NCBI GenBank assembly: GCA_947630785.1
Contig: CANRIW010000016.1
Location: forward strand, 1-42,308
Source: an uncultured Oscillospiraceae bacterium
GTDB lineage: Bacteria; Bacillota; Clostridia; Oscillospirales; Oscillospiraceae
Direction: 5' to 3'
DNA: 42,308 nucleotides
The first letter of the stretch is position 1, and each line of letters begins with the position of its first letter. This document shows positions 1-14,223 of this stretch, piece after piece. A model generated the notes under the pieces. The model saw nothing but the letters and a program-made list of their open reading frames with translations. It was not told the origin of the DNA and searched no databases. The position numbers were made by a program, and so were the translations under genes.

Positions 1-963
1 GAGTTCCCCGAGCTGGTGGACCCCCGCACCGGCGAGACCCTGATGAAGCGCACCGTGCTGATCGCCAACACCTCCGATATGCCCGTGGCCGCCCGTGAGG
101 CGTCCATCTACACCGGCATCACTATCGCCGAGTACTTCCGCGACATGGGCTACGACGTGGCCGTCATCGCCGACTCCACCTCCCGCTGGGCCGAGGCTCT
201 CCGTGAGATGTCCGGTCGTCTGGAGGAGATGCCCGGCGAGGAGGGCTACCCCGCCTATCTGGCCTCCCGTCTGGCCCAGTTCTATGAGCGGGCGGGCGCC
301 GTGTCCTGCCTGGGCACCGACGAGCGGGCCGGCTCCCTCACCGCAGTGGGCGCCGTGTCCCCTCCCGGCGGCGACCTGTCCGAACCCGTGTCTCAGGGCA
401 CCATGCGCATCGTCAAGGTGTTCTGGGCCCTGGACGCCTCCCTGGCCTATAAGCGCCACTTCCCGGCCATCAACTGGCTGAACTCCTACTCCCTGTATCT
501 GGACTCTCTGAAGCCCTGGTTCGACGAGAATCTGGGCCGGGACTTCCTGAAGAACCGGGAACAGGCCATGGGCCTGCTCCAGAGCGAGGCCAGCCTCAAC
601 GAGATCGTCCAGCTGGTGGGCAAGGACTCCCTGAGTCCCAACGACCAGTTGACGCTGGAGTCCGCCCGGATGGTCCGCGAGGACTTCCTCCAGCAGAACT
701 CCTTCGTGGACATCGACTCCTTCTCCAGCTATGACCGGCAGGAGAAGCTGCTGTCCATGATCCTCTACTATGACAAGCTGTGCCGGGACGCCATCGCCAA
801 GGGCGCCCCCGCCGCGAAGCTGTTCGAGATCCCCGCCCGCGAGCGGGTGGGCCGGGCCAAGTCCGTCCCCGCCGAGGAGTACACGAAGGTCTATGCAGAC
901 ATCGTGGCCGACATGGAGCGGGAGATAGACGAAGTGACCAGAAAGGCAGGTGAGGAGCTGTGA
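1..963 (+). CDS. atpA: V-type ATP synthase subunit A, 3' part (5' end outside window)
   Basis: This is the catalytic A subunit of the V1 headpiece of a V/A-type ATP synthase, which couples ATP hydrolysis or synthesis to H+ or Na+ movement. The reading frame is open from base 1 and lacks a start, so the N-terminus, including the Walker A loop, lies upstream; 320 codons remain. Visible family signatures include the [13 protein letters not shown] block, the EEGYPAYL segment and the [11 protein letters not shown] stretch of the catalytic nucleotide fold, followed by the helical C-terminal domain. The TGA at 961-963 overlaps the GTG start of the B subunit by three bases, showing translational coupling. 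The TTG/GTG codons near base 16 are internal, not starts. Family assignment is secure; ion specificity cannot be read from this part. Confidence 0.97.
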
Positions 964-2342
964 TCCGAGAGTACAAGACCATCCAGGAGATCGTCTCCCC
1001 GCTGATGATGGTCAAGATGGTGGAAAACGTCACCTATGACGAGCTGGTGGAGGTGGAGCTGCCCGACGGCGGCATTCGCCGGGGCAAGGTGCTGGAGGTC
1101 AACGGCGACACCGCCGTGGTCCAGCTGTTCGAGTCCGCCGCCGGCATCAACCTGGCCGAGTCCAAGGTCCGTTTCCTGGGCCACCCCCTCCAGCTGGGCG
1201 TGTCCGCCGACATGCTGGGCCGGGTGTTCAACGGCATGGGCGTGCCCATCGACGGCGGCCCCGACATCCTGGCTGAGGAGTACCGGGACATCAACGGTCT
1301 GCCCATGAACCCCGCCGCCCGGGACTACCCCAACGAGTTCATCCAGACCGGCATCAGCACCATCGACGGCCTGAATACCCTGGTCCGCGGGCAGAAGCTG
1401 CCCATCTTCTCCGGCTCCGGCCTGCCCCACGCCAATCTGGCCGCCCAGATCGCCCGTCAGGCCAAGGTGCTGGGGGACGACGCCGGCAACTTCGCCGTGG
1501 TGTTCGCCGCTATCGGCATCACCTTCGAGGAGTCCGAGTTCTTTGTGCAAGAGTTCCGCCGCACCGGCGCCATCGACCGCACGGTGCTGTTCACCAACCT
1601 GGCCAACGACCCGGCCGTGGAGCGCATCTCCACCCCCCGTATGGCCCTGACGGCGGCCGAGTATCTGGCCTTCGAGAAGGACATGCACGTGCTGGTCATC
1701 CTGACCGACATCACCAACTACGCCGAGGCTCTCCGCGAGGTCTCCGCCGCCAAGAAGGAGGTCCCCGGACGGCGGGGCTTCCCGGGCTACCTGTACACCG
1801 ACCTTGCCACCATGTACGAGCGGGCCGGCCGCCAGCTGGGCAAGCCCGGCTCCATCACCATGATCCCCATCCTCACCATGCCCGAGGACGACAAGACCCA
1901 CCCCATCCCCGACCTGACCGGCTACATCACCGAGGGGCAGATCATCCTGTCCCGGCCGCTGTACCGCCAGGGCATCAATCCCCCGGTGGACGTGCTGCCC
2001 TCCCTGTCCCGTCTGAAGGACAAGGGCATCGGCGTGGGCAAGACCCGGGAGGACCACGCCAGCACCATGAACCAGCTGTTTGCCGCCTATTCCACCGGCA
2101 AGGACAACAAGGAGCTCATGTCCATCCTAGGCGAGGCCGCTCTGACCCCCACCGATCTGCTCTACGCCAAATTCGCCGACGAGTTCGAGAAGCGGTACGT
2201 CAACCAGGGGTACGAGGAGAACCGGTCCATCGAGGAGACCCTGAATCTGGGCTGGGAGCTGCTGTCCATCCTGCCCACCTCCGAGCTGAAGCGCATCAAG
2301 CCTGAGCTGATCGAGAAGTATCTGCCCAAAAAGGAGGGCTAA
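960..2342 (+). CDS. atpB: V-type ATP synthase subunit B
   Basis: Non-catalytic B subunit of the V1 hexamer, alternating with A. The 460-residue length is normal for the family. It starts with GTG at 960 inside the stop of the A gene. The N-terminal beta-barrel begins near residue 10 ([10 protein letters not shown]), the degenerate P-loop region reads [19 protein letters not shown], and a [21 protein letters not shown] segment follows, as in archaeal-type B subunits. It lies between A and D in the usual A-B-D order; three bases separate it from subunit D. No oddities seen. Confidence 0.97.
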
Positions 2343-2345
2343 ACA

Positions 2346-3038
2346 ATGGCCGCAACCGTTGTGAATCCCACCCGAATGGAGCTCACCCGGCTGAAGGGCA
2401 AGCTGCGCACCGCCCAGCGGGGCCACAAGCTGCTGAAGGACAAGCGGGACGAGCTGATGAAGCAGTTCCTGGAGACTGTCCGTGAGCTGCGGACCCTCCG
2501 GGCCCAGGTGGAGCAGGAGCTGATGAAGGTCCACAGCTCTTTCACCGTGGCCTCCGCCCTGATGAGCGGCCCCGCCATGGAGCAGGCCCTGATGTACCCC
2601 AAGCAGAGCGTGGAGCTGTCCATGACCTTCCGCAACGTGATGAGCGTCAACGTGCCGGAGTACCACTACAAGACCCGCACCGACGACGCCGGGGACATCT
2701 TCCCCTACGGCTTCGCCGCCACCTCCGGCGAGCTGGACGGCGCCGTGGCCGCCCTGGGCGAGGTGTTCCAGTCCATGCTCAAGCTGGCCGAGACCGAGAA
2801 GTCCATGCAGCTCATGGCGGAGGAGATCGAGAAGACTCGCCGCCGGGTCAACGCGCTGGAATACGTGGTCATCCCCGACACTGAGGAATCCATCCGCTAT
2901 ATCACCATGAAACTGGACGAGAACGACCGCGCCACCACCACTCGGCTGATGAAGGTGAAGGACATGATACTGAAGGAAGCCATTGAGGAAAAGCAGGCGA
3001 AAACGAAGGAAATGCTGGACAAATTCGAGAAACAGTAA
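2346..3038 (+). CDS. atpD: V-type ATP synthase subunit D
   Basis: Subunit D forms the central rotor shaft of V1, passing torque between the A/B hexamer and the membrane ring. The 230-residue protein begins with the typical PTRMELTRLKGKLRTAQRGHKLLKDKRDEL helix (residues 8-37) and ends in a long helix (residues 150-230), giving the antiparallel coiled coil expected of the family. ATG at 2346 follows the B stop by three bases, with the AAGGAGG near 2332-2338 as ribosome site. It is the last gene of the operon and is followed by a strong terminator at 3112-3152. Confidence 0.97.
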   Translation: MAATVVNPTRMELTRLKGKLRTAQRGHKLLKDKRDELMKQFLETVRELRTLRAQVEQELMKVHSSFTVASALMSGPAMEQALMYPKQSVELSMTFRNVMSVNVPEYHYKTRTDDAGDIFPYGFAATSGELDGAVAALGEVFQSMLKLAETEKSMQLMAEEIEKTRRRVNALEYVVIPDTEESIRYITMKLDENDRATTTRLMKVKDMILKEAIEEKQAKTKEMLDKFEKQ

Positions 3039-3377: not shown

Positions 3378-3755
3378 TCATGCCGTTTCCTCTTTTGCCA
3401 ACTTTTCCAGCGGGATAAATCCCACCAGGTCATAAGCGATGCGGATACCCTGACGCCGCTTGCCGGTACTCTTGTCCGGGGCCTCGATGTAGATGGCCTT
3501 GACAAGTTCCCGCAGGGCGTAGGGCGTCAACTCTTTCAGTTCCGTGTACTTGTGTACCCGCTGGATGAATTGGTCTATATCGTCGATCTGCCGTTCCTGC
3601 GCTTCGATTTCCTGCTTCAAGGACTGCGCCTCGGCCTTGAGCCGGGTCTGCTCGTCCTCATAGGTTTTGCTCATCATGGAAAACCGCTCGTCACTGATCC
3701 GCCCGCTTACATTGTCCTCATACAGACGGATGAACAGCCGGTTTACGGCGTGGCC
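3378..3755 (-). pseudogene. C-terminal stub of a large serine recombinase (DUF4368-type)
   Basis: Read on the minus strand, the last ~120 residues match the C-terminal part of TnpX/Tn4451-type large serine recombinases: the RLYEDNVSGRISDERFSMM block, a long Glu/Gln-rich helix (TYEDEQTRLKAEAQSLKQEI), then ELTPYALRELVKAIYIEAP and a KRRQGIRIAYDLVGFI strand ending at 3378. The N-terminal resolvase domain with its catalytic Ser and the zinc ribbon are absent, and similarity stops near 3745-3755, where the opposite strand becomes a RepA helicase. It is therefore a truncated, non-functional remnant of a third recombinase, distinct from the two intact-start copies at 6172 and 7835. The family is recalled from memory, without a search. 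Confidence 0.75.
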
Positions 3756-4283
3756 GTTCTGCTCATCCATCATCTGCGAAAGATGATCGACGACGATCCT
3801 CTGAACATGATCTCCGGCACCACGGGATTGAGCGGCGCGACGGATTCCAGTTTCGTTCTGAAGCCGGACCGGCGCGGCAGTGAGCTGGCGACGCTCTACT
3901 GCACAGGCCGGGACATTGAGTACCGGGAGCTGCCGCTCCGATTCCAGAAAGAGACTCACACCTGGGAACTGACCGCGCCGGTCATCGACGACGCACCTCC
4001 TGCCGACCCGGCGCTGAATTCTCTCTCTGTTTTTCTCTCCGGCGTCTCTCCCTTCGATGGCACCGCGACAGAACTGAGCGAGCTGCTGGAACTGCACACC
4101 GGCGAAAAAATCCTTCCCAGCGTTCTCTCAAAGCGTTTGGCCCGATACGCAAGTGAGTTAGACAAGGCCGGTATCCAGATCACCACTGGCCGCACCAGGG
4201 ACGCGCGAACGCTCCACATCAGCGCCCGTCCCAGTGACGGCAATGACGGGAATGACGGGAAAAATGATACGGCCTCTGTGTGA
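3744..4283 (+). pseudogene. C-terminal stub of a RepA-like AAA helicase of mobile elements
   Basis: From about 3744 the plus strand reads GVAVLLIHHLRKM, then a DDDPLNMISGTTGLSGATDSSF block and CTGRDIEYREL. These are hallmarks of the C-terminal half of the RepA-type hexameric replicative helicase carried by Firmicutes integrative elements. A winged-helix-like tail follows (GTATELSELLELHTGEKILPSVLSKRLARYASEL) and the protein ends in a short DGNDGNDGKND repeat. The Walker A and B motifs expected upstream are missing, because the frame runs into antisense of the recombinase stub. The stretch is open from 3366, but 3366-3743 is not helicase. I treat it as a truncated gene joined to another truncated gene. 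Confidence 0.72.
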
Positions 4284-4590: not shown

Positions 4591-4905
4591 ATGCAGAAAA
4601 GAAAAACCTCGATCATCACCGCCAGGATGACCCCGGCGGACAAGAACGCCATCCAGCGGCGGGCCAAGGCCGCCGGCATGACGGTCACAGACTACCTCAC
4701 CGCCTGCGCCCTGGGCAAAGAGATCGTCCGGGTGGAAGGGCTGGACGCTGTGCTCTCTGAGCTGAAGGCCCAGGGCAGGAATCTCAACCAGCTCACCACG
4801 CTGGCCAACATGGGCCGCCTCTCTGTCCTGCGAGGCGACGAGCTGATCCGCGGCTACTCCGCGCTCTGCTCCGCAGTGCGCGCTCTCATTCAGGAGGCGG
4901 AGTGA
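4591..4905 (+). CDS. mobC: MobC-type relaxosome accessory protein
   Basis: A 104-residue DNA-binding accessory protein that helps the relaxase open oriT. The N-terminus (TSIITARMTPADKNAIQRRAKAAG) looks like a ribbon-helix-helix fold and is followed by MTVTDYLTACALGKEI. The C-terminal half (LKAQGRNLNQLTTLANMG) is the MobC family signature. ATG at 4591 follows a GGGGGAGAAAGAAGG ribosome site. Its stop overlaps the start of the relaxase (TGATG), so the two are translationally coupled. It lies directly downstream of the candidate oriT. Confidence 0.88.
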   Translation: MQKRKTSIITARMTPADKNAIQRRAKAAGMTVTDYLTACALGKEIVRVEGLDAVLSELKAQGRNLNQLTTLANMGRLSVLRGDELIRGYSALCSAVRALIQEAE

Positions 4906-5909
4906 TGGCGACCTTCACCGCGGTGCGAAACAAAAAGCAGACCGCCGGTACCATGAGAGCGGTGGTCAGTTACGTCACGCAGCTCAAAAAAGTTTCGTGG
5001 GACGGCGCTCAACTGGTCAGCGGACACAACTGCGTCCCTGCCTCCGCCCTCACCGAGATGCAGATGACCAAGGAGCGGTTCAGGAAAACCGGCGGCCGCC
5101 AGTTCTACCACTTCGTCCAGTCCTTCTCGCCGGACGACGACCTCACGCCTCAAGAGGTCAACGCCTTGGGGCTGGAGTTGGCGCGGCGTGAGTTCCCGGA
5201 CTACGAGGTGCTGGTGGCCACTCACGTGGACGCCAACTGTCTCCACAACCACCTGGTGATCAACAGCGTGAGCTGCGCGGACGGGCATAAGCTCCACCAG
5301 AACACCAAGGACCTGATCCAGCACCGCAGGGCCAACGATGAGATCTGCCTCGCCTTCGGGCTGAACGTTTTGGAGCAGCCCAGAAAACATGAGCAGAAGA
5401 AACGGATGAAGCCCGGCGAGTATCAGGCCGGCATCCGGGGCGAAAGCTGGAAGATGGATCTCATCCACACCATCAACGAAGCGCTGGAGTACGCCATGGA
5501 CCGGGAGACGTTCATTGAGAACATGGAGCAGGAGGGCTACGGCGTGATCTGGACGGACGCCCGCAAGCACATCACGTTCCTCTGTCCTGACGGCCACCGC
5601 TGCCGTGACAGCAGCCTCCACGACGAGACGTTCCTGAAAGAAAACCTGGAGGCGCTGTTCGCCTATCGGCAGGCAGTCGGGTTCACACCTGGCACAGAGG
5701 AGCCAAACATGGGTTGGCTGGGCGAGGCGGCCATGGGGTTGATCCAGATCGGCAGACGCCTGGAGCAGATGGCGGATCGACCGCCTCTCCCCTCCCCGCC
5801 CGTGTGGACGGACAGCAAGCAGCGCCGGCGGGAGGCGCTGAAGAAGCTGGCCATGGGACATAAGTTCAGCGGCTGGGACGAGCAAAACTACACCGTGAAT
5901 ATGTACTGA
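4905..5909 (+). CDS. Relaxase / mobilization nuclease (MOBP-like)
   Basis: This protein should nick oriT and lead the transferred strand during conjugative mobilization. The 334-residue product shows the relaxase domain: Tyr in AVVSYVTQ (residue 23) as candidate nucleophile, a RQFYHFVQSF strand, and the metal-binding triad H107-x6-H114-N-H116 in THVDANCLHNHLVIN. The C-terminus is short and helical, without a primase or helicase fusion. I chose ATG at 4905 over GTG at 4902 because AGGAGG at 4892-4897 is better spaced to it. It is coupled to mobC and followed by a small ORF and two serine recombinases, a typical mobilizable-element order. Confidence 0.88.
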   Translation: MATFTAVRNKKQTAGTMRAVVSYVTQLKKVSWDGAQLVSGHNCVPASALTEMQMTKERFRKTGGRQFYHFVQSFSPDDDLTPQEVNALGLELARREFPDYEVLVATHVDANCLHNHLVINSVSCADGHKLHQNTKDLIQHRRANDEICLAFGLNVLEQPRKHEQKKRMKPGEYQAGIRGESWKMDLIHTINEALEYAMDRETFIENMEQEGYGVIWTDARKHITFLCPDGHRCRDSSLHDETFLKENLEALFAYRQAVGFTPGTEEPNMGWLGEAAMGLIQIGRRLEQMADRPPLPSPPVWTDSKQRRREALKKLAMGHKFSGWDEQNYTVNMY

Positions 5910-6096: not shown

Positions 6097-6171
6097 AAAC
6101 ATGCGCGTTCTTTTCGTAGCTATTCCGAAGCGAGTGTGCTATGTTGTGTCGTGCGAAAGGAGGCGCCGCCG

Positions 6172-7875
6172 GTGAAGGTCTGGCTGTACTACCGTCTCTC
6201 CCGCGACGAGGACGAGGAACTGAACTCGCTGACCAACCAGCGCAAGATCATCTATGACTACGCCGTGGCCCAGGGCCATGAGATCGTGGGCGAATCCTTC
6301 GACGACAACGTCAGCGGGATGCACTTCAACCGGGAGGGCATCGAAAGGATCTACGAGGCGGTGGAAGCGGACCGTATCGAGGCCGTCATCGTCAAGGACC
6401 TCTCCCGGCTGGGGCGGCACCGCACCCAGACCGCTCTCTTCATCGACTACCTCCGGGAACACAATGTGCGCGTCCTCTCCGCCACCGAGAACATCGACAC
6501 CTTCAACGAGAACGACGACCTGATCATCGGCTTCAAGGGTCTGGTCAACGACTTCTACGCGCGGGACGGCAGCCGACGGGTGCGGACCGGGTACCGGCAG
6601 AAGCAGAAAGAGGGCATCGTGATGATCCCGCCCTTCGGTTACTTTAAGGACAAGAACACCAAGCAGGTGGTCATTGTGGAGGAGGCCGCCGAGACGGTGC
6701 GCCTCATCTACTCTCTGTATCTGGACGGCAGCGGCCTCAAGGCCATCGCCCGGAGGCTGAACGAGGAACACCGCAGGACTCCCGCCCAGATGCAGTTGGC
6801 ACTCCTCCGCAAGCGGGAACCAAGCACCCGCGGCGGCATCCGAAAGAAAAATATCTGGGAAGCCACCATGGTGTCCCGCATCCTCCAGGATGAGTTCTAC
6901 GCCGGCACACTGATCTGCCACAAGAGTGAGCGGAACAAGATCAACAAGACCTTCCGCTTCACCGAACCTGACGAGCAGTTCCGCCATGAGAATTTTGTCC
7001 CCGCCATCGTCACCAAAGAGATATGGCAGCAGGTACAGGCGCTGATAGCTCAGCGGAAGGAGGGCCGTGCCCGGGCCGCGCCGGGGAAAAAGCTCTTGCG
7101 GTACGGCGGCCTGCTGCGATGCGAGGACTGCGGCAGGACCTTCGTGGGCAAGCACATCAGGCTCAAAAGCAGGGACCGGGTGGAATACATCTGCGACACC
7201 TACCACCGCTACGGCAAGGAGCACTGTACCTCCCACGCCATCCGGGAGGAACTGCTGGATCAACTCATCATCGACGAGCTGCGGGACACCAAGCGGATGT
7301 ACCAACAGAATTGGGACAGCCTTCAGAAGCTGATCGACCGCTGGATCCCTCAACGATTCTCCGTGGATACCAAGCTAAGATCTCTCACCGAGCGGATCGA
7401 CACATTGGAAGAAGAAATGGAGGCCATCCTTATGGAGCGCATCCGGGACAAGGCCAACGCCGAACGCTACGACCGCATGATCCAGAAGCGTGAGGCGGAG
7501 ATCGCCGACCTCAAAAAGCAGATCGCGGAGCTGGAAAATCTGGAGGACACGCTGAAACAGCGTCAGGCCACCCTTCGCCGGGACATCAGGCTGATGGACA
7601 GCATCCTGACCGAGGGCGCCATCTCCGAGGCCAACCTGCGGCTGCTGGTGGACAAGATCTATATCGCGGAGCGGAACGGCAAACTGGACGTGGACATCCA
7701 CCTCAAAGCGCCTTTCCAGACCCACGGGCTGGTTTATGAAAATGGCGAGGTCACAGAGGCTTGGGGTTCGCAGGACTATGATTGGGATCGGTTGGGCGCG
7801 ATCCTAATGGAGGACTTCTGGAAAGGAGAAGGCAATGACGGCAACGAGGGCGTGGCTGTACTACCGGCTGTCTAA
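6172..7875 (+). CDS. Large serine recombinase, copy 1
   Basis: Site-specific integrase of the mobile element. The resolvase domain occupies residues 1-150 with catalytic Ser10 in WLYYRLSRDEDE and the Arg-containing VKDLSRLGRHRTQ motif. The recombinase domain follows (PPFGYFKDKN, EAAETVRLIYSLYLDGSGLKAIA, ATMVSRILQDEFYAG), then a zinc ribbon with CEDC and CDTYHRYGKEHC, then a long coiled coil (about 385-490) and a C-terminal beta segment. The 567-residue length is complete. The true start is GTG 6172 after AAAGGAGG (6156-6163), not the upstream frame from 6136. It overlaps recombinase 2 by 41 bases in another frame. Confidence 0.92.
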   Translation: MKVWLYYRLSRDEDEELNSLTNQRKIIYDYAVAQGHEIVGESFDDNVSGMHFNREGIERIYEAVEADRIEAVIVKDLSRLGRHRTQTALFIDYLREHNVRVLSATENIDTFNENDDLIIGFKGLVNDFYARDGSRRVRTGYRQKQKEGIVMIPPFGYFKDKNTKQVVIVEEAAETVRLIYSLYLDGSGLKAIARRLNEEHRRTPAQMQLALLRKREPSTRGGIRKKNIWEATMVSRILQDEFYAGTLICHKSERNKINKTFRFTEPDEQFRHENFVPAIVTKEIWQQVQALIAQRKEGRARAAPGKKLLRYGGLLRCEDCGRTFVGKHIRLKSRDRVEYICDTYHRYGKEHCTSHAIREELLDQLIIDELRDTKRMYQQNWDSLQKLIDRWIPQRFSVDTKLRSLTERIDTLEEEMEAILMERIRDKANAERYDRMIQKREAEIADLKKQIAELENLEDTLKQRQATLRRDIRLMDSILTEGAISEANLRLLVDKIYIAERNGKLDVDIHLKAPFQTHGLVYENGEVTEAWGSQDYDWDRLGAILMEDFWKGEGNDGNEGVAVLPAV

Positions 7876-9109
7876 CGACGACGACCCGGAGCGGAACTCC
7901 CTGCAAAACCAGCGGGCCATCTGCCGGGAGTTCGCGGTGAACCGTGGACTCACTATCGTAGGCGAGTCCTTTGACGACAACGTCAGCGGCATGACCTTCT
8001 CCCGGCCGGGACTCCGCCGCCTGTCCGAGGCGGCGGAGCGCGGGGGATTGGACGCGGTCGTGGTCAAGGACTTGTCTCGGTTGGGACGGCACAAAACGCA
8101 GACCGCCCTGTTCATCGACTATCTGCGGGAACGAAACATCTGCGTCCTCTCCGCCACAGAACACCTCGACACCCTCAATGAAAGCGACGACCTGATCATC
8201 GGCATCCGTGGGCTGATGAACGACTACTACGCCCGCGACATCGGCAACAAGATCCGCGCCGGGTACCGGCAGAAGCAGAAAGAAGGGCTGGTCATCATCC
8301 CGCCCTTTGGCTACTGGAAGGACAGAAACACCGGCAAGATCCAGGTGGTGGCCGAGGCCGCCGAGACGGTCCGGGCCATCTACCAGATGTACCTCGGCGG
8401 CATGGGACTCATGCCCATCGCCCGCTCGTTGAACGCAGAGGGCCGCCGGACGCCCGCGGAGCTGCAGGTCCAGTTCTACGGCAAGCACATGCGGGGCGTC
8501 CGGCGCTTCCTCTGGTCTTACACCAGCGTGAAAAACATCCTCCAAGACGAAAGCTATATCGGCGTCCTGCTCTGCCACCGGCAGGAATTCAAAAACGGGC
8601 GGCGTTCCCGGTACGTCCCGGAATCGGAGCAGTTCCGGCACGAGGGGTATTACCCCGCCGTCATTGCGAGGGAGGACTGGGAACAGGTCCAAGCCCTGCT
8701 CCGGCAGCGTCAGAGGAAACAACCCGCTGGGAACCGCCCCTGCCACCGATACGCGGGGCTGTTGGTCTGCAAAGACTGCGGCGGGCCGTTCGTGGCCATC
8801 AACCGGGAGTGGAACGGCTGCCGGCGGGTAGAGTATATCTGCAAGAGCTACATGCGGCACGGGAAGGCGTTCTGCCCCTCCCACCGCATCCATGAGGAAG
8901 TGCTGGACGGGCTGGTGTGGGACAGGCTGACGGCCTGCCGTAACGCCGCCGCCCAGGAACAGCGGAAACTGAAAGAATACCAGAAGCGCCTGGCGTTGAG
9001 GAAACCCGTCCTCGACGCCAGGCGCTTATTTCTATATCAGCGGATTCAAAAGTTGGAGCGGGAGCTGGATGAGATCTCAATGGAGAAAATCAGGAGTGGT
9101 AAAAAATAA
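7835..9109 (+). CDS. Large serine recombinase, copy 2, C-terminally truncated
   Basis: A paralogue of copy 1, starting at ATG 7835 after GGAAAGGAGAAGG. Catalytic Ser13 lies in WLYYRLSNDDDPERN. The VKDLSRLGRHKTQ, PPFGYWKDRN and zinc-ribbon cysteines (CKDC, CKSYMRHGKAFC) are all present. The 424-residue protein stops inside the coiled coil: its ISMEKIRSGKK* end aligns with ILMERIRDKAN of copy 1, after which copy 1 continues for about 140 residues. The domain lost is the coiled-coil tail that controls synapsis in large serine integrases, so integration directionality may be altered or the gene dead. The break near 9100 probably marks a deletion or insertion junction with the following restriction remnant. 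Confidence 0.88.
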   Translation: MTATRAWLYYRLSNDDDPERNSLQNQRAICREFAVNRGLTIVGESFDDNVSGMTFSRPGLRRLSEAAERGGLDAVVVKDLSRLGRHKTQTALFIDYLRERNICVLSATEHLDTLNESDDLIIGIRGLMNDYYARDIGNKIRAGYRQKQKEGLVIIPPFGYWKDRNTGKIQVVAEAAETVRAIYQMYLGGMGLMPIARSLNAEGRRTPAELQVQFYGKHMRGVRRFLWSYTSVKNILQDESYIGVLLCHRQEFKNGRRSRYVPESEQFRHEGYYPAVIAREDWEQVQALLRQRQRKQPAGNRPCHRYAGLLVCKDCGGPFVAINREWNGCRRVEYICKSYMRHGKAFCPSHRIHEEVLDGLVWDRLTACRNAAAQEQRKLKEYQKRLALRKPVLDARRLFLYQRIQKLERELDEISMEKIRSGKK

Positions 9110-9207: not shown

Positions 9208-9282
9208 GAAAAAAGTTAGTGTTATTTGCTTTTCAGCCGTAGAGATACCCGGACAGATGCACAAGCCGAGGGAGGTATACAC

Positions 9283-10098
9283 ATGAACCCAATTCTACCG
9301 AAAAAGGACATGTCAGAGGAAGACATCAAACTCCAGTACATCACCCCGGCTATTACCGCGAAGTGGGATATCAGCAAGATCACGATGGAAACACAGATCA
9401 CCGACGGCAAAGTCAATCTTAAGGGAAACCTCGTGGTTCGTGAGAAGCCGAAGCGGGCGGATTACATTCTGTATCTGAGCCCTAATAACCCTATCGCCAT
9501 TATTAAAGAGGGTAAGATCAAAAAGGAAAAACCTCTGCCGGAGATTACAGAGGAGGAAAAGTCGTTTGAGATTCCGGAGAGCTGGAAGTGGGTAAAACTT
9601 GGTAATATCGTAACTGTTTTAGGAGGGAAAAGAATTCCCGCTGGGCGAAAACTCACTACTGAAGATACAGGCCATAAGTACATTCGCGTTTCTGATATGA
9701 AAGATTGTTCCGTTTTAATAAGCAACTTATTGTTTGTCCCAGAAGATGTTTATCCATCAATCGCAAAGTACATCATTTGCAAAGAAGATGTTTATATTAC
9801 TGTTGCAGGAACAATTGGTCGAGTGGGAAAAATTCCAGACGAACTTGATGGGGCAAACCTTACTGAAAACGCAGATCGGCTGGTGTTTTCAATTTTGCAT
9901 CAGAATTGGCTGATAAAATGTCTTGAATCCTCCTTCGTACAATCCCAAATTGCAGATGTGACAACTAAAGTAGGGCAACCCAAATTGGCTATTAGGCGCA
10001 TACAAGAATTGATTATTCCCCTCCCACCCCTCGCCGAGCAGAAGCGCATCGTGGCCCGGCTGGAGGAGGTGCTGGCGGTGTGCGAGAGGTTGAAATGA
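9283..10098 (+). CDS. Chimeric type I restriction fragment: HsdR N-terminus fused in frame to HsdS
   Basis: Residues 1-73 (SEEDIKLQYITPAITAKWD, DGKVNLKGN, KRADYILYLSPNNPIAI) match the N-terminal nuclease region of type I restriction subunit HsdR. At about base 9500 the frame passes without a stop into HsdS: IKEGKIKKEKPLPEITEEEK, FEIPESWKWVKLGNIV, one target-recognition domain, then PLPPLAEQKRIVARLEEVL and a CERLK end. The HsdR nuclease needs an E-x-K just after PIAI; this is replaced by IKEGK, and the helicase motor and all of HsdM are missing. So an internal deletion of a type I locus left a 271-residue in-frame chimera. ATG 9283 follows AGGGAGG. The half-size HsdS module could still bind DNA; restriction is very unlikely. 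Confidence 0.8.
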   Translation: MNPILPKKDMSEEDIKLQYITPAITAKWDISKITMETQITDGKVNLKGNLVVREKPKRADYILYLSPNNPIAIIKEGKIKKEKPLPEITEEEKSFEIPESWKWVKLGNIVTVLGGKRIPAGRKLTTEDTGHKYIRVSDMKDCSVLISNLLFVPEDVYPSIAKYIICKEDVYITVAGTIGRVGKIPDELDGANLTENADRLVFSILHQNWLIKCLESSFVQSQIADVTTKVGQPKLAIRRIQELIIPLPPLAEQKRIVARLEEVLAVCERLK

Positions 10099-10130: not shown

Positions 10131-10733
10131 ATGTCCCCCAAAAAATTCAAAGGAATTAAATTTACTCTTCAGGAAAAATGCAAAACCTGCCCACAATCCG
10201 AAACATGTTTCAGCAATGATTCTCTGTTTACAACTAAAATGATTATAATTGACTGCGAGGGGTTTTATCACATTTTCAAAGAACTGGAGGCATTTGAGAG
10301 GCTTCCTCAATTTGATGGTGATTTAGAAAAGCACAAAGAAGGGATGATTGCATATAAAAATAGGCATATGGACCTTCCTTTCCTTATCCCACCACTTGTT
10401 GTTAATGGTGCATTAGCCGCAGAATTGGCACTCAAATCTTTGATATATATAGAGAATGGTGAATTTGATTGCATCCATAATCTGCAGCAACTGTTCAGTT
10501 TGCTGCCCGATTGCCATAGGGCTAATTTGACTGAAATGATTTTTACACAAGCCCATCAAAATGAAGAAACGCTGCAAAAAAATCTGAGGCAAATTGCAGA
10601 TTCATTTGAAAACTGGCGGTACTTTTTTGAAACAGATGCTGTTGGGTACACAAATTTTTTCAATAATTTTGTGCATATTGTTTGTGATTATGCTATTGCG
10701 TTAAAGCCGGATGATGAAATATTGTTGAGGTGA
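10131..10733 (+). CDS. Hypothetical HEPN-like protein
   Basis: A 200-residue protein of AT-rich, foreign-looking composition. ATG 10131 is preceded by GGGAGGTG. The N-terminus has a CxxC...C cluster (CKTCPQSETC). The middle (NGALAAELALKSLIYIENGEFDCIHNLQQLF) resembles the helical core of HEPN-type proteins in which an AELxLK helix is followed by an HNLxxLF helix, and ENWRYFFE comes later. I do not see the R-x4-6-H ribonuclease motif in its usual place, so activity is uncertain. It is followed four bases later by a small gene that may be its partner. Similarity is by recall only. Confidence 0.6.
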   Translation: MSPKKFKGIKFTLQEKCKTCPQSETCFSNDSLFTTKMIIIDCEGFYHIFKELEAFERLPQFDGDLEKHKEGMIAYKNRHMDLPFLIPPLVVNGALAAELALKSLIYIENGEFDCIHNLQQLFSLLPDCHRANLTEMIFTQAHQNEETLQKNLRQIADSFENWRYFFETDAVGYTNFFNNFVHIVCDYAIALKPDDEILLR

Positions 10734-10984: not shown

Positions 10985-11043
10985 ACCAAAGGCACCCACC
11001 CCCAGTTTGGCAATAACGCCTGCTGAGAGTGGGTGCTTTTGGT
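10985..11043. terminator. Bidirectional hairpin between the hypothetical pair and tRNA-Leu
   Basis: Arms 10985-10999 and 11029-11043 form a 15-bp stem with one G-T wobble (core GCACCCAC / GTGGGTGC) and a TTTT run inside the 3' arm. The 3' arm includes the CCA end of tRNA-Leu, so the hairpin can also act as the 3' boundary of the minus-strand tRNA transcript. Confidence 0.6.
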
Positions 11044-11123
11044 GCGGGCAACAGGATTCGAACCTGCACGGATTTCTCCAGTGGCTCCTAAGACCACCGT
11101 GGCTACCATTACACCATGCCCGC
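11040..11123 (-). tRNA. tRNA-Leu (anticodon UAG), CCA encoded
   Basis: The minus strand folds as a class II tRNA. The acceptor is GCGGGCA / TGCCCGC. The anticodon arm is GTGGT-CTTAGGA-GCCAC with anticodon TAG, followed by a 13-nt variable region and a GCAGG-TTCGAAT-CCTGT T-arm. Discriminator A and an encoded CCA (11042-11040) follow. This is the only complete tRNA-Leu in the window; six truncated relatives lie upstream of it on the same strand. Confidence 0.88.
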
Positions 11124-11164: not shown

Positions 11165-11222
11165 CCTTCACTGAGGTGACAGCACCTAAATCCATCGAGT
11201 CTACCAATTCCACCACGCCCGC
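11165..11222 (-). repeat. Truncated tRNA-Leu-like repeat R1 (type B)
   Basis: 58 nt from acceptor start GCGGGCG through D-arm (GTGGTGGAATTGGTAGAC) and anticodon loop TTTAGG (UAG), then the shared tail GTGCTGTCACCTCAGTGAAGG. No T-loop 3' half or acceptor 3' strand follows. A leader ending GAATAC separates it from the intact tRNA-Leu. Confidence 0.8.
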
Positions 11223-11266
11223 ATATATGAACGGCGGCTTCATGCCGTCGCTTTTTTATCAAAAAA

Positions 11267-11324
11267 CCTTCACTGAGGTCACAGCACCTAAATCCATCGT
11301 GTATACCAATTTCACCACGGGTGC
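11267..11324 (-). repeat. Truncated tRNA-Leu-like repeat R2 (type A)
   Basis: 58 nt beginning GCACCCGTGGTGAAATTGG with loop TTTAGG and the shared GTGCTGT/CAGTGAAGG tail. The next bases (to 11223) match only the 3' end of the small unknown gene seen downstream of R4 and R6, so this unit appears to have lost its gene by deletion. Confidence 0.78.
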
Positions 11325-11364
11325 GTATTCAATTTTTACGGGTTATGCCCTGTTTGTTCAAAAT

Positions 11365-11422
11365 CCTTCACTGTGGTCACAGCACCTAAATCCTGCGCGT
11401 CTGCCAATTCCGCCATACCCGC
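11365..11422 (-). repeat. Truncated tRNA-Leu-like repeat R3 (type B)
   Basis: 58 nt beginning GCGGGTATGGCGGAATTGG with loop TTTAGG. Nearly identical to R5. It follows the 3' end of the broken small gene (11441-11984) and precedes the leader of R2. Confidence 0.8.
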
Positions 11423-11440
11423 ATATGTGCGGCGGCTCCA

Positions 11441-11984
11441 TCACCGCCGCTTTTCATCAAAATCCACCGCTATTTTGGCCATCGGCAGGGCCGTTCGCAC
11501 CGTTCGGGACATTGCCTCCCCGCAGACGATCACAATGGCCCATCCGTCATAGCAAACGATCTCCATCTGCGTCAGCGGCATCTGAAAACGATACTCTGGT
11601 GAGAAAAGCCCTTTGGCCTCCCAGAAGGGGGCATAGTCCCTCACCGCCTCCACCCCAGTCCCGCGGGGGACGGCGGCCCTGTGTTTAAAAAAGGACCTCA
11701 ATCCATCCCACCGCCTCCACCCCAGTCCCGCGGGGGACGGCAGAAAGGACGCCCGACAGGATCCTGACGCTGCCGCTCCGCAAATACCCGAGCAGTTCGC
11801 GTCCCTCCATCAGCAGGCCCGTCCAACCCCAGCGCCGGCGGACTTCCTCTGTGGCATTGGATCCAAACCACAGGTCGGTGCCGCTGACCACCCAATCGTA
11901 CCGTTCCAGTATACCGTTCAACGCGGAAAACACATCCAGCAGGTCCCCGGGAAGTTCCGCCCGATCGATTATCCAATAATCCAT
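11441..11984 (-). pseudogene. Broken copy of a small unknown gene (paralogue of 13685-14158)
   Basis: The product begins MDYWIIDRAELPGDLLDVF at ATG 11984, seven bases after the GAAGG tail of repeat R4, which serves as ribosome site. It is about 90% like the intact copy. At 11675-11741 a 67-bp insertion that includes a second copy of a 33-bp segment (11642-11674 and 11709-11741) shifts the frame, so the first part ends early and the second part (PFWEAKGLFSPEYRF to DFDEKRR) is out of frame. The intact copy has this segment once. Function unknown; the small acidic, Trp-rich character is reminiscent of immunity-type proteins, but that is only an impression. Confidence 0.78.
11642..11741. repeat. 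33-bp direct duplication inside the broken gene
   Basis: Identical 33-bp segments at 11642-11674 and 11709-11741 separated by 34 bp (period 67). This is a local duplication that introduces a +1 frameshift in the minus-strand gene. Confidence 0.85.
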
Positions 11985-11991
11985 AGCAATT

Positions 11992-12049
11992 CCTTCACTG
12001 AGGTAACAGCACTTAAATCCATCGTATGTACCAATTTCACCACGGATAC
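11992..12049 (-). repeat. Truncated tRNA-Leu-like repeat R4 (type A)
   Basis: 58 nt with acceptor-side GTATCCG, D-arm GTGGTGAAATTGGTACATA, loop TTTAAG (UAA-like) and the shared tail CAGTGAAGG. ATTGCT and then the ATG of the broken small gene follow directly, so the tail acts as the Shine-Dalgarno. Confidence 0.8.
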
Positions 12050-12095
12050 GTATACATTTTTACAAAACCACCCCACAGGGCATATAAGCAATCTA

Positions 12096-12124
12096 TTGAC
12101 AAAAAAGGACAATGCCGCTATTAT
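12096..12124 (+). promoter_or_regulatory. Consensus sigma-A promoter for the sigma-like gene
   Basis: TTGACA at 12096-12101, exact 17-base spacer, TATTAT at 12119-12124. The ribosome site AGTGAGGAG and ATG 12166 follow. This is the strongest plus-strand promoter in the tRNA-bounded region. Confidence 0.82.
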
Positions 12125-12165
12125 GAAACAATTATAGTGTCTGCAGTTCAGTGAGGAGTATCAAT

Positions 12166-12766
12166 ATGCTTCAAAAAAACCGACTCTCGCTATCCCTATT
12201 ATTCCCGGGACTTGGATTTCGCACTTGCACAACAAGCGTTGGCAGGGGATGTTAGCGCTTGGAATGAACTCTACATCTCTGCACACCCTCTTGTCCTGAA
12301 AAGTGTTCAGTCCGCAGATCACCATAACCTTCTCACGCATGATGAACGCATTGACATTACTGACGAAGCTTTTAAACGATGCTACGAACAGTTAAATCGC
12401 TATCAGGGGCTCAGCAGATTTCATCGCTGGGTAACCGGATACGCAAAAAAACTGCTTCAAAATTTGTATTCCCGCAAAGCAACCGTGCGGCGGAACCAGT
12501 ATTTATTAAAATGTATCACAGAATCCCAAGCAAGAAATCAAAATCCGCTTCTAATTTTGATTCAATTGGAACGGAATCAATTCCTTTGGGAAGCATTTTA
12601 CCAACTTACTGACACGGAGCAGAACATTGTGTACTGTGCTCTTTTTCTCCGATTTTCCCCACGTAAAATTTCCAAAATAGTACAATTAACACGAAAGCAA
12701 GTGCTTCAGGCTTACAACGATGCACTATTCAAAATCCGCTGGCAATTTCTTCGCTTATATCGTTAA
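12166..12766 (+). CDS. Sigma-70 family (ECF-like) sigma factor with an A7-tract frameshift at its 5' end
   Basis: The in-frame body (12212-12766) reads DFALAQQALAGDVSAWNELY, DITDEAFKRCYEQL, SRFHRWVTGYAKKLLQNL, then a C-terminal helix-turn-helix (LTDTEQNIVYCALFLRFSPRKISKIVQLTRKQVLQAY). This matches short sigma-70 region 2 and region 4 proteins of Clostridia. The only good start, ATG 12166 after GTGAGGAG, is in another frame; the real frame has no ATG upstream. Removing one A from the A7 run at 12173-12179 joins them as MLQKTDSRYPYYSRDLDFA. So the gene is a frameshift mutant, is expressed through slippage at the A7 tract, or the base count is wrong. The plus orientation is opposite to its neighbours, with its own consensus promoter. 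Confidence 0.7.
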
Positions 12767-12781
12767 CGGGCTAATCTCTCA

Positions 12782-13543
12782 CTACTTGTTTAAACCAAAC
12801 GCTTTCCCGGTTTGAAAAAGGCTTTGAACCGCATTCTCAACTACATCAAGGACTGTATTCTTTTGTGTTTGGATATCCACAGAATATGTATTCAGTTCCT
12901 CCATAAAATACCTATATCGTCTTGGAAAACTGTGGTCATAACTCGCAATTCTGCATCGAACACTTTCAAGCGCATCGGAGGCAATTGTCTCTACTGCGCA
13001 TATCCATAACTTCTCTTGCTTTCCATAATCGGCTTCATTTACCATGTCCTCAAACAGTAATCGGTACAAAATTCCTGCATAGCTACGGAACCTGGCCTGC
13101 TTAGAAACCGTCCCCTCTGTTTGGTATATTGTCAGGCAAGTACAAACCATTTCCTGTATTGTTGTATAGAACCGTGGGTCTACCGGTCTGTCTGGCAAGC
13201 CGGAATGTCTTTCGCGTTCCGCCTGATATGCCGCTTTTTTCCATTCCCTCAGCTTTTCGGGAGGATATGCGCTCACATCACGATCGATCAACGCTGCACA
13301 TTTACTGCAAAGGAGGATCCCATTTTCTTCTCCTGCCCGTTCTTTTCTCGTCATAGACGCATCATAACGGGGACCATTCGGAGAAGCGGCGCAAATATGC
13401 GCAACAACGCCTGTATTGATGACTCTCTCTCCATCCTCAGTATAGGAACGCGTTCTTGCGGGGCAATCCGGATTTGAACAACGGAATCCACTTTTTAAAC
13501 TGATTTGGTTTTTTACCGCGTCTGAAAAATTATCCCGTGTCAT
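12782..13543 (-). CDS. HNH endonuclease-like protein
   Basis: A predicted 253-residue protein with an N-terminal HNH/zinc-finger module: C22 and C27 in FRCSNPDCPAR, H49 in VVAHICAAS, the NGPRYDASMTRKER loop, N74 in ENGILLCSKC, C79/C82. The last His of classic HNH motifs is replaced here (SKCAALID). The C-terminal 150 residues are helical and unrecognised. Such HNH proteins are common in defence islands as DNA-cutting effectors; that role is inferred. I chose ATG 13543 (GGGGCAGGA upstream). The frame is open to 13657, but its first residues (MAELADAQDLG) are translation of tRNA-like repeat R5. The stop faces the sigma-like gene, 15 bases away. Confidence 0.68.
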   Translation of the reverse strand: MTRDNFSDAVKNQISLKSGFRCSNPDCPARTRSYTEDGERVINTGVVAHICAASPNGPRYDASMTRKERAGEENGILLCSKCAALIDRDVSAYPPEKLREWKKAAYQAERERHSGLPDRPVDPRFYTTIQEMVCTCLTIYQTEGTVSKQARFRSYAGILYRLLFEDMVNEADYGKQEKLWICAVETIASDALESVRCRIASYDHSFPRRYRYFMEELNTYSVDIQTQKNTVLDVVENAVQSLFQTGKAFGLNK

Positions 13544-13605
13544 CTTATTAAATCCTGCCCCATCCGAGTTTTCCTCTTGACTTTCACCTTTCGCGCTATT
13601 TGGAA

Positions 13606-13663
13606 ACATCACTGAGGTGACAGCACCTAAATCCTGCGCGTCTGCCAATTCCGCCATACCCGC
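13606..13663 (-). repeat. Truncated tRNA-Leu-like repeat R5 (type B)
   Basis: 58 nt beginning GCGGGTATGGCGGAATTGG, loop TTTAGG, tail GTGCTGTCACCTCAGTGATG. It matches R3 except for the last bases, where the GAAGG ribosome-site motif is changed to GATG. The HNH gene lies downstream. Confidence 0.8.
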
Positions 13664-13684
13664 ATATAAGCGGCGGCCTCATTA

Positions 13685-14158
13685 CTACCGCTTCTTATCA
13701 AAATCCACCGCTCTTTTTGCCATCGGCAGAGCCGTTCGCACCGTCCGGGACATTGCCTTCCCGCAGACGATCACAATGGCCCATCCGTCATAGCAAATGA
13801 TCTCCATCTGCGTCAGCGGCGTCTGAAAACGATACTCTGGTGAGAAAAGCCCTTTGGCCTCCCAGAAGGGGGCATAGTTCCTCACCGCCTCCGCCCTGGT
13901 CCCGCGGGGGACGGCAGACAGGACGCCCGACAGGATCCTGACGCTGCCGTCCTGCAGATATCCGAGCAGTTCACGCCCCTCCATCAGCAGGCCCGTCCAA
14001 CCCCAGCGCCGGCGGACTTTCTCTGTGGCATTGGGGCCAAACCACAGGTCGGTGTCGCTGACCACCCAATCGTACCGTTCCAGTATACCGTTCAACGCGG
14101 AAAACACATCCGGCAGGTCTCCCGGAAGTTCCGCCCGATCAATCGTCCAATGATCCAT
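13685..14158 (-). CDS. Small unknown protein, intact copy (157 aa)
   Basis: Starts at ATG 14158, seven bases after the GAAGG that ends tRNA-like repeat R6. It reads MDHWTIDRAELPGDLPDVF, then WVVSDTDLWFGPNATEKV, LLMEGRELLGYL, and ends with MEIICYDGWAIVIVCGKAM and a basic tail. No signal peptide or membrane segment. A broken paralogue lies at 11441-11984 in an equivalent unit. I do not recognise the family; size, Trp/Asp content and duplication resemble immunity or accessory proteins of toxin systems, but no toxin partner is evident unless the HNH protein next door is one. A hairpin (AAGCGG / CCGCTT) overlaps its stop. Confidence 0.72.
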   Translation of the reverse strand: MDHWTIDRAELPGDLPDVFSALNGILERYDWVVSDTDLWFGPNATEKVRRRWGWTGLLMEGRELLGYLQDGSVRILSGVLSAVPRGTRAEAVRNYAPFWEAKGLFSPEYRFQTPLTQMEIICYDGWAIVIVCGKAMSRTVRTALPMAKRAVDFDKKR

Positions 14159-14165
14159 AGCAATT

Positions 14166-14223
14166 CCTTCACTGAGGTCACAGCACTTAAATCCATCGTA
14201 TGTACCAATTTCACCACGGGTGC
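14166..14223 (-). repeat. Truncated tRNA-Leu-like repeat R6 (type A)
   Basis: 58 nt beginning GCACCCGTGGTGAAATTGG, loop TTTAAG, tail CTGTGACCTCAGTGAAGG, then ATTGCT and the ATG of the small unknown gene. Its upstream leader (CAAACAGGGC block near 14243-14258) recurs before R2 and before the intact tRNA-Leu. Confidence 0.8.

What the first reader, a model, noticed from the sequence alone, without database searches (positions are those of the whole stretch)
11165..14223. Six 58-nt truncated tRNA-Leu-like repeats on one strand
Six minus-strand copies (R1 11165-11222, R2 11267-11324, R3 11365-11422, R4 11992-12049, R5 13606-13663, R6 14166-14223) keep a tRNA-Leu acceptor 5' strand, D-arm and a TTTAGG or TTTAAG anticodon loop, then share an unusual tail (GTGCTGT, ACC, CAGTGAAGG) and stop before the T-loop. 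All are about 58 nt. They alternate as type A (R2, R4, R6) and type B (R1, R3, R5), are bounded by intact tRNA-Leu and tRNA-Val, and share leader blocks with the intact tRNA-Leu. Constant length and conserved tail in all copies argue for a maintained element, not random decay.
Basis: partly seen in the sequence, partly recalled or inferred. Interest (0 to 1): 0.85.

Follow-up and report, generated by a model that had tools for sequence, protein, structure and literature searches.

The report
Insertion scars in a tRNA gene
The six odd repeats are the left-hand insertion scars of a family of mobile DNA elements that cut the bacterium's tRNA-Leu(UAG) gene in half and bring a replacement tRNA gene with them, so the array is a record of repeated takeovers of an important gene.

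Summary
The repeats are real and at the stated places. They are not a 58-nt RNA family. Each is an attL junction: 38 nt of tRNA-Leu(UAG), ending in the anticodon loop (TTTAGG), joined to 20 nt of a mobile element's att arm (TGCTGTCACCTCAGTGAAGG). In three relatives the predicted partner, attR (the same arm inverted, TTTAGG, then the tRNA 3' half), lies 16-26 kb away. Between the two sit tandem large serine recombinases, a relaxase, cargo (defence genes in the two elements tested) and, next to attL, an intact tRNA-Leu(UAG). For one element, attL half plus attR half equals, letter for letter, the intact tRNA at the unoccupied site of two congeners. The window holds the most recent such element (recombinases 6136-9109, relaxase 4902-5909), its right end and attR eroded; its tRNA-Leu is the only UAG-reading tRNA-Leu found in the assembly. 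Successive elements insert into the tRNA brought by the previous one, and attL scars pile up. The closest known case is tRNA-dependent lysogeny of actinophages (tyrosine integrases); new here are serine recombinases, a non-phage mobilizable element and scar arrays. I rate it a new variant of a known kind.

The parts
11165..11222 (-). R1, attL scar (5' half 11185-11222, P' arm 11165-11184)
   Evidence: boundary
11267..11324 (-). R2, attL scar, 5'-half class A
11365..11422 (-). R3, attL scar; 5' half identical to that of the tRNA carried at L055, G285 (L081) and G232 (L082)
11992..12049 (-). R4, attL scar, class A, TTTAAG loop
13606..13663 (-). R5, attL scar; 5' half identical to that of R3; last bases ATGT
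14166..14223 (-). R6, outermost attL scar (oldest in the model), class A, TTTAAG loop
11040..11123 (-). intact tRNA-Leu(UAG) carried by the last element; the only UAG-reading tRNA-Leu found in the assembly
6136..7875 (+). large serine recombinase RecB (Resolvase, Recombinase, Zn_ribbon_recom); 70% identical to that of the G232 element
7835..9109 (+). second serine recombinase RecA, 52% identical to RecB
4902..5909 (+). MobA/VirD2-like relaxase
4591..4905 (+). NikA-like mobilization protein
9226..10098 (+). type I restriction specificity subunit (cargo)
10131..10733 (+). HEPN-domain match below the Pfam cut-off (cargo, uncertain)
13685..14158 (-). left-end cargo gene of unknown function between R6 and R5; its ATG lies 7 nt after the attL arm
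11441..11984 (-). broken second copy of that gene between R4 and R3 (two overlapping shorter frames)
12782..13657 (-). HNH/effector-nuclease-like gene whose open frame begins inside R5 (true start uncertain)
12212..12766 (+). sigma-70-ECF-like gene between R5 and R4
3378..4097 (-). eroded right end: frame ending in a DUF4368 domain (found on serine recombinases, as I recall), probably from another element
16..3038 (+). V/A-type ATPase genes, chromosomal flank beyond the element

Best explanation
The repeats are attL scars of integrative mobilizable elements (IMEs) that use a pair of large serine recombinases to recombine a palindromic attP (about 19-bp arms around a central TT) with the anticodon loop of the host's tRNA-Leu(UAG) gene. 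Integration splits the tRNA: the 5' half stays at attL with one attP arm, the 3' half at attR with the other. The element carries its own tRNA-Leu(UAG) with leader close to attL, which replaces the broken one. That tRNA is the target for the next element. Loss of element bodies and attR, probably by homologous exchange between the carried and displaced tRNA 3' halves or between related elements, leaves one more attL per cycle, with any left-end cargo gene. Shown: att anatomy, unoccupied sites, carried tRNA, co-occurrence with recombinases. Inferred: recombination activity, that the carried tRNA is charged and used, and the route by which bodies are lost.
For:: one related contig (L055) has the inverted tail followed by TTTAGGT and a tRNA-Leu 3' half; joined to the 5' half of one of its attL it is called an intact tRNA-Leu(UAG); the attR pattern derived from it (19 fixed bases) was found with 0 mismatches in 3 of the 12 attL genomes, on the same contig and strand as attL, 16.0-26.3 kb away. 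G118's attL half plus attR half equals, 0 of 85 differences, the intact tRNA-Leu(UAG) of G022 and G182 (same genus), between matching flanks on both sides. G066 keeps the 5' half of its congeners G145/G202 as attL, has a different intact tRNA, and continues directly into the shared downstream flank. RecB found (E <= 1e-140) in 6 of 300 genomes, 5 of them among the 12 of 300 with attL (hypergeometric 2.4e-7, kinship ignored); one is the window; in 16 of 19 loci an intact tRNA-Leu(UAG) follows on the same strand 35-775 nt after the last attL; the other 3 run off the contig; 13 of 35 attL 5' halves are identical to that of a tRNA carried at another locus, R3 and R5 of the window among them; attP arms match at 16-18 of 19 positions.
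Against: No attR within 3 mismatches in the window's own genome, and an exact attR in only 3 of the 12 attL genomes; the window's right end is eroded. Only 5 of the 12 attL genomes have a RecB match, so 7 must be scars without a body or have incomplete assemblies; that search scored at most 4 first-look candidates in each genome row shown. G172 has a RecB fragment but no attL was found. Everything rests on genome sequences, many of them drafts; no excised circle or recombination assay. No tRNA-Leu(CAA) was found in the assembly, so it may lack tRNA genes. There is no unoccupied-site proof for the window's own position. The A/B alternation and the 92-93% similar duplicated blocks R6-R5 and R4-R3 could include a segmental duplication, so six repeats need not mean six independent insertions.
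Confidence: 0.94

Rival explanations
1. A maintained family of about 58-nt tRNA-like RNAs, processed by RNase P.
For: Constant length and conserved tail in all six copies; recurrence in other genomes.
Against: The tail is an inverted copy of the arm at attR; 5' parts are exact halves of intact tRNAs elsewhere; by eye the acceptor 5' strand has no partner in the repeat; no Rfam match at the repeats at gathering score.
Confidence: 0.03
2. Decayed tandem tRNA-Leu duplications.
For: Alternating classes, shared leaders and a duplicated block look like local duplication.
Against: The same breakpoint and tail occur in 35 attL copies at 19 loci; attR was seen at L055 and, as predicted from it, at 3 more loci; an unoccupied site matches exactly.
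Confidence: 0.02
3. A cassette system in which tRNA 5' halves act as capture sites for single genes, integron-like, without a large element.
For: Small genes lie between attL copies; in 7 of 33 testable attL an ATG with an open frame of 60 aa or more starts 4-7 nt after the tail, against a 4.7% background rate for a 3-12 nt range.
Against: Elements of 16-26 kb with recombinases and relaxase lie between attL and attR; small genes fit as left-end cargo.
Confidence: 0.04

Closest known systems
tRNA-dependent lysogeny (Guerrero-Bustamante and Hatfull 2024, PMC10865867; outline, abstract and passages seen)
   Same: Integration at an attB in an essential tRNA gene with a short shared core does not rebuild the tRNA; [quoted passage not shown]
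   Different: There: temperate actinophages with tyrosine integrases, dependence shown by experiment. Here: a non-phage mobilizable element with two serine recombinases in Oscillospiraceae, serial insertion into carried tRNAs and attL scar arrays; no experiment.
Dehalococcoides ssrA genomic islands (McMurdie 2011, PMC3146451; abstract and sections 5, 10, 11 read)
   Same: Serine recombinase pair; a single-copy RNA gene as target; tandem islands marked by repeated target fragments; presumed IMEs.
   Different: There the repeats are 20-bp copies of the ssrA 3' end, islands lie downstream of ssrA, and a tRNA-Gly-like locus is present that is not a copy of the target. Here the target is split and replaced.
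SCCmec CcrA/CcrB cassettes
   Same: Two serine recombinases; window proteins match the CcrA, CcrB and CcrC models.
   Different: 61-87 bits against cut-offs of 700-900; RecB scores higher against XisF (100 bits, cut-off 375), also below cut-off. SCC inserts in rlmH (recalled), not a tRNA.
Serine-recombinase IMEs of Bacillota (review PMC5704250, passages seen)
   Same: Serine recombinase plus relaxase, insertion inside a gene.
   Different: The passages seen describe a single serine recombinase and disruption of dispensable genes; they mention no replacement tRNA.

Membership tests
Integrative mobilizable element (IME) | own integration/excision recombinase | tested here: met
   tandem serine recombinases between attL and attR in G232, G118, G246, and in the window
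Integrative mobilizable element (IME) | relaxase/mobilization genes without a full conjugation apparatus | tested here: met
   relaxase in G232 and window by Pfam, in G118 and G246 by tblastn; no conjugation gene among the ORFs given to Pfam, but not every ORF was given
Integrative mobilizable element (IME) | excises and transfers | not testable with these tools
   needs PCR of attP circles and mating
tRNA-dependent lysogeny | insertion splits a tRNA gene without rebuilding it | tested here: met
   attL and attR halves against the intact unoccupied site
[quoted passage not shown]
   tRNA-Leu(UAG) downstream of the last attL in 16 of 19 loci, the other 3 run off the contig
tRNA-dependent lysogeny | the carried tRNA is required for the host | not testable with these tools
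   only one UAG-reading tRNA-Leu found in the window's assembly; essentiality not tested
tRNA-dependent lysogeny | element is a temperate phage with a tyrosine integrase | tested here: not met
   serine recombinases and a relaxase; exact att patterns not found in the viral collection; PHROGs was not searched
SCC (CcrAB) cassette | CcrA/CcrB by curated cut-off | tested here: not met
   61-87 bits against cut-offs of 700-900
Integron gene cassette array | IntI tyrosine recombinase and attC sites (recalled) | tested here: not met
   recombinases are serine type; sites are two-armed with a TT core; attC itself was not searched

The most novel reading that the evidence does not exclude
A 'tRNA takeover ratchet': defence-carrying IMEs repeatedly replace the host's only tRNA-Leu(UAG). 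Each cycle irreversibly leaves an attL scar that keeps the old tRNA promoter and can drive left-end cargo through the GAAGG of the att arm. The last carried tRNA in the window (GGTCTTAGGAGCC instead of GGATTTAGGTTCC) has lost the target sequence and so closes the site to competitors.
Probability: 0.3. Interest if true: 0.78.

Novelty: new variant of a known kind. Interest (0 to 1): 0.62.

Why it matters
It extends element-supplied tRNA replacement from phages with tyrosine integrases to mobilizable elements with paired serine recombinases. It means that the tRNA-Leu(UAG) of several lineages is of mobile origin. The scars are a readable, ordered insertion history and explain puzzling 'truncated tRNA' repeats. 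The att sites are precise enough to test the recombinases as tools that target a conserved anticodon loop. Cargo of the elements tested includes Avs2-like, restriction-modification and other defence-model genes, so the site looks like a defence hot spot.

Tried and rejected
Rfam scan at gathering score: only the two intact tRNAs. Viral-contig scans, exact matches only: one match to GGATTTARGTGCTGTNACC without a tRNA 5' half or tRNA gene, taken as chance, and none for the attL, attP and attR patterns. tagA as anchor for an unoccupied site at the window locus failed: 3 of 6 genomes had no match at E <= 1e-50, in G285 the tRNA-Val/tagA stretch has no tRNA-Leu, and in G247 the stretch held no tRNA, so there is no unoccupied-site proof for the window's own position. 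Early ideas of a regulatory leader RNA or integron-like cassettes were dropped once attR was found. No covariance model was built and no protein structure predicted: once the repeats proved to be DNA junctions these would not bear on the question. Rows dropped: L055:7238 was first listed as an attL by the fuzzy filter and is the attR; it is left out of the 35 attL. Two attL too near contig ends were left out of the start-codon count (33 of 35). L054, L069 and L088 are one contig (same length and sequence around attL) and were counted once. One diverged attL in G246 (TTTAGGTTCTGTCACC) is not among the 35. In one search three further hits have 3 mismatches (G066, G094, G143); the reversed control pattern also matched 3 times there, so I take them as chance. 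One search gave 19 places in 12 of 15 genomes; ARAGORN was run on 10 of these loci (L112-L121).
Full report
What is there. The six repeats are as described; their core pattern has no other exact match in the assembly. Read 5' to 3' on the minus strand the order is tRNA-Val, R6, small gene, R5, HNH-like gene and (on the other strand) a sigma-factor-like gene, R4, broken copy of the small gene, R3, R2, R1, intact tRNA-Leu(UAG), then genes on the opposite strand.

Recurrence. An exact scan of genome contigs with the core gave 8 contigs: 6 titled Oscillospiraceae, one Candidatus Faecousia faecavium, one uncultured Clostridia. In 300 genomes of the window's family 12 matched (up to 2 mismatches); the reversed control pattern matched in none of them. 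In an order-wide draw of 394 genomes with a somewhat stricter pattern (1 mismatch) 4 matched, all among the 43 of the same family, and none of the 351 genomes of other families (handles G300-G650). At every locus that extends far enough (16 of 19; the other 3 end on the contig edge) an intact tRNA-Leu(UAG) follows on the same strand, 35-775 nt after the last repeat.

The key. On L055 the mirror image of the tail stands before TTTAGGT and a tRNA-Leu 3' half. That predicts an attR, and the pattern was found without mismatch in 3 of the 12 attL genomes (G232, G118, G246), on the attL contig and strand, 18.8, 26.3 and 16.0 kb away. The other three hits have 3 mismatches; the reversed control also matched three times there, so I take them as chance. 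The two arms form an attP with 16-18 of 19 matching positions around a central TT, the layout expected of a large serine recombinase (recalled). The crossover falls at U33-U34 of the anticodon loop (inference from the alignment).

Unoccupied sites. G118's outer 5' half plus its attR 3' half is identical over 85 nt to the intact tRNA-Leu(UAG) of G022 and G182, congeners in which that tRNA lies between the same flanking DNA. G066 shows the scar state: its outer repeat has the 5' half of congeners G145/G202, it has a different intact tRNA, and the shared downstream flank begins right after CCA; no recombinase was found in the 7.4 kb after its tRNA and no RecB match at E <= 1e-140 in that genome, where 4 of 13 first-look candidates were scored. 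G232's attL and attR halves together equal the tRNA carried by G118's element, as expected if elements insert into the tRNA left by earlier ones. Over the 19 loci 13 of 35 attL 5' halves equal that of a carried tRNA from another locus, including R3 and R5 of the window.

The element. Between attL and attR lie two tandem serine recombinases and a relaxase (by Pfam in G232; by tblastn in G118 and G246). The G232 element also has an AAA protein and a sigma-like protein and matches to the Avs2 and PDC-S37 defence models; the G246 element has matches to PDC-S15 (FRG domain) and a type II methyltransferase. G118's cargo was not scanned. Both recombinases, or RecA and part of RecB, were found in 7 of the 16 loci that hold sequence after the tRNA; in several of the other 9 little sequence is held. 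RecB was found in 6 of 300 genomes, 5 of them among the 12 attL genomes; one is the window, at 6172-7827. The window also has RecA, relaxase and NikA-like genes. Its right end is broken off: at 3378-4097 a frame ends in DUF4368, then come V/A-ATPase genes. No attR was found in this genome. Of 39 tRNA matches in the assembly nine are longer than 80 bases, as tRNA-Leu must be; these nine were typed as Leu UAG, UAA, CAG and GAG, four Ser and one Tyr, so the window's gene is the only UAG-reading tRNA-Leu found. No CAA-reading tRNA-Leu was found, so the assembly may miss some.

Mechanism. Shown: split target, two-armed att site, carried tRNA, linked recombinases. Inferred: that RecA and RecB do the reaction; that the carried tRNA works; and that scars grow because bodies and attR are lost by recombination between the carried and displaced 3' halves or between related elements. 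The attL arm ends in GAAGG, and in 7 of 33 testable attL an ATG with an open frame of 60 aa or more follows 4-7 nt on (background 4.7% for a 3-12 nt range). Four of these seven start what looks by eye like one gene family, three of them in one genus, so independence is limited. Expression of left-end cargo from the old tRNA promoter is therefore possible but not shown.

Unexplained. The strict A/B alternation in the window, and why blocks R6-R5 and R4-R3 are 92-93% alike: two insertions of sister elements or a duplication. Six insertions is therefore an upper estimate.

Known work. PMC10865867 (outline, abstract, passages) describes the same logic for actinophages with tyrosine integrases. PMC3146451 (abstract, sections 5, 10, 11) describes serine-recombinase islands at tmRNA. 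PMC5704250 (passages) says that integration of site-specific serine-recombinase IMEs disrupts dispensable genes. PMC12884075 was seen in passages only. My literature searches (four of them returned nothing) showed nothing closer in their listings; they cover only the open-licence library and few word combinations.

Noticed in passing
window 11040-11123: The carried tRNA-Leu has GGTCTTAGGAGCC and an altered D arm instead of GGATTTAGGTTCC; the same tRNA is at L051, and none of the 35 attL 5' halves matches its 5' part. Possible resistance to further insertion.
   Followed up: partly
window 11441-11984 and 13685-14158: Two copies of a 157-aa gene, one broken; the intact one has no Pfam, PADLOC or NCBIfam match; look-alikes start right after attL in G285 and G143.
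   Followed up: partly
window 3378-4097: Frame ending in DUF4368 at the eroded right end, probably from a different mobile element.
   Followed up: partly
window 12782-13657: Open frame starts inside R5 with MAELADAQDLG, a translated tRNA-Leu; such starts may mislead gene annotation.
   Followed up: no
L055 7252 (oriented with the array on +): The attR lies about 3.7 kb past the intact tRNA, with genes that look chromosomal (rubrerythrin-, QueD- and Fur-like by eye, not searched) in between and no recombinase match.
   Followed up: partly
L062, L063, L067, L068 between attL and tRNA: A recurring leader block with a hairpin, a T run and CCGAGTAAAAATAGAGGG before the carried tRNA; perhaps terminator plus promoter.
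   Followed up: no
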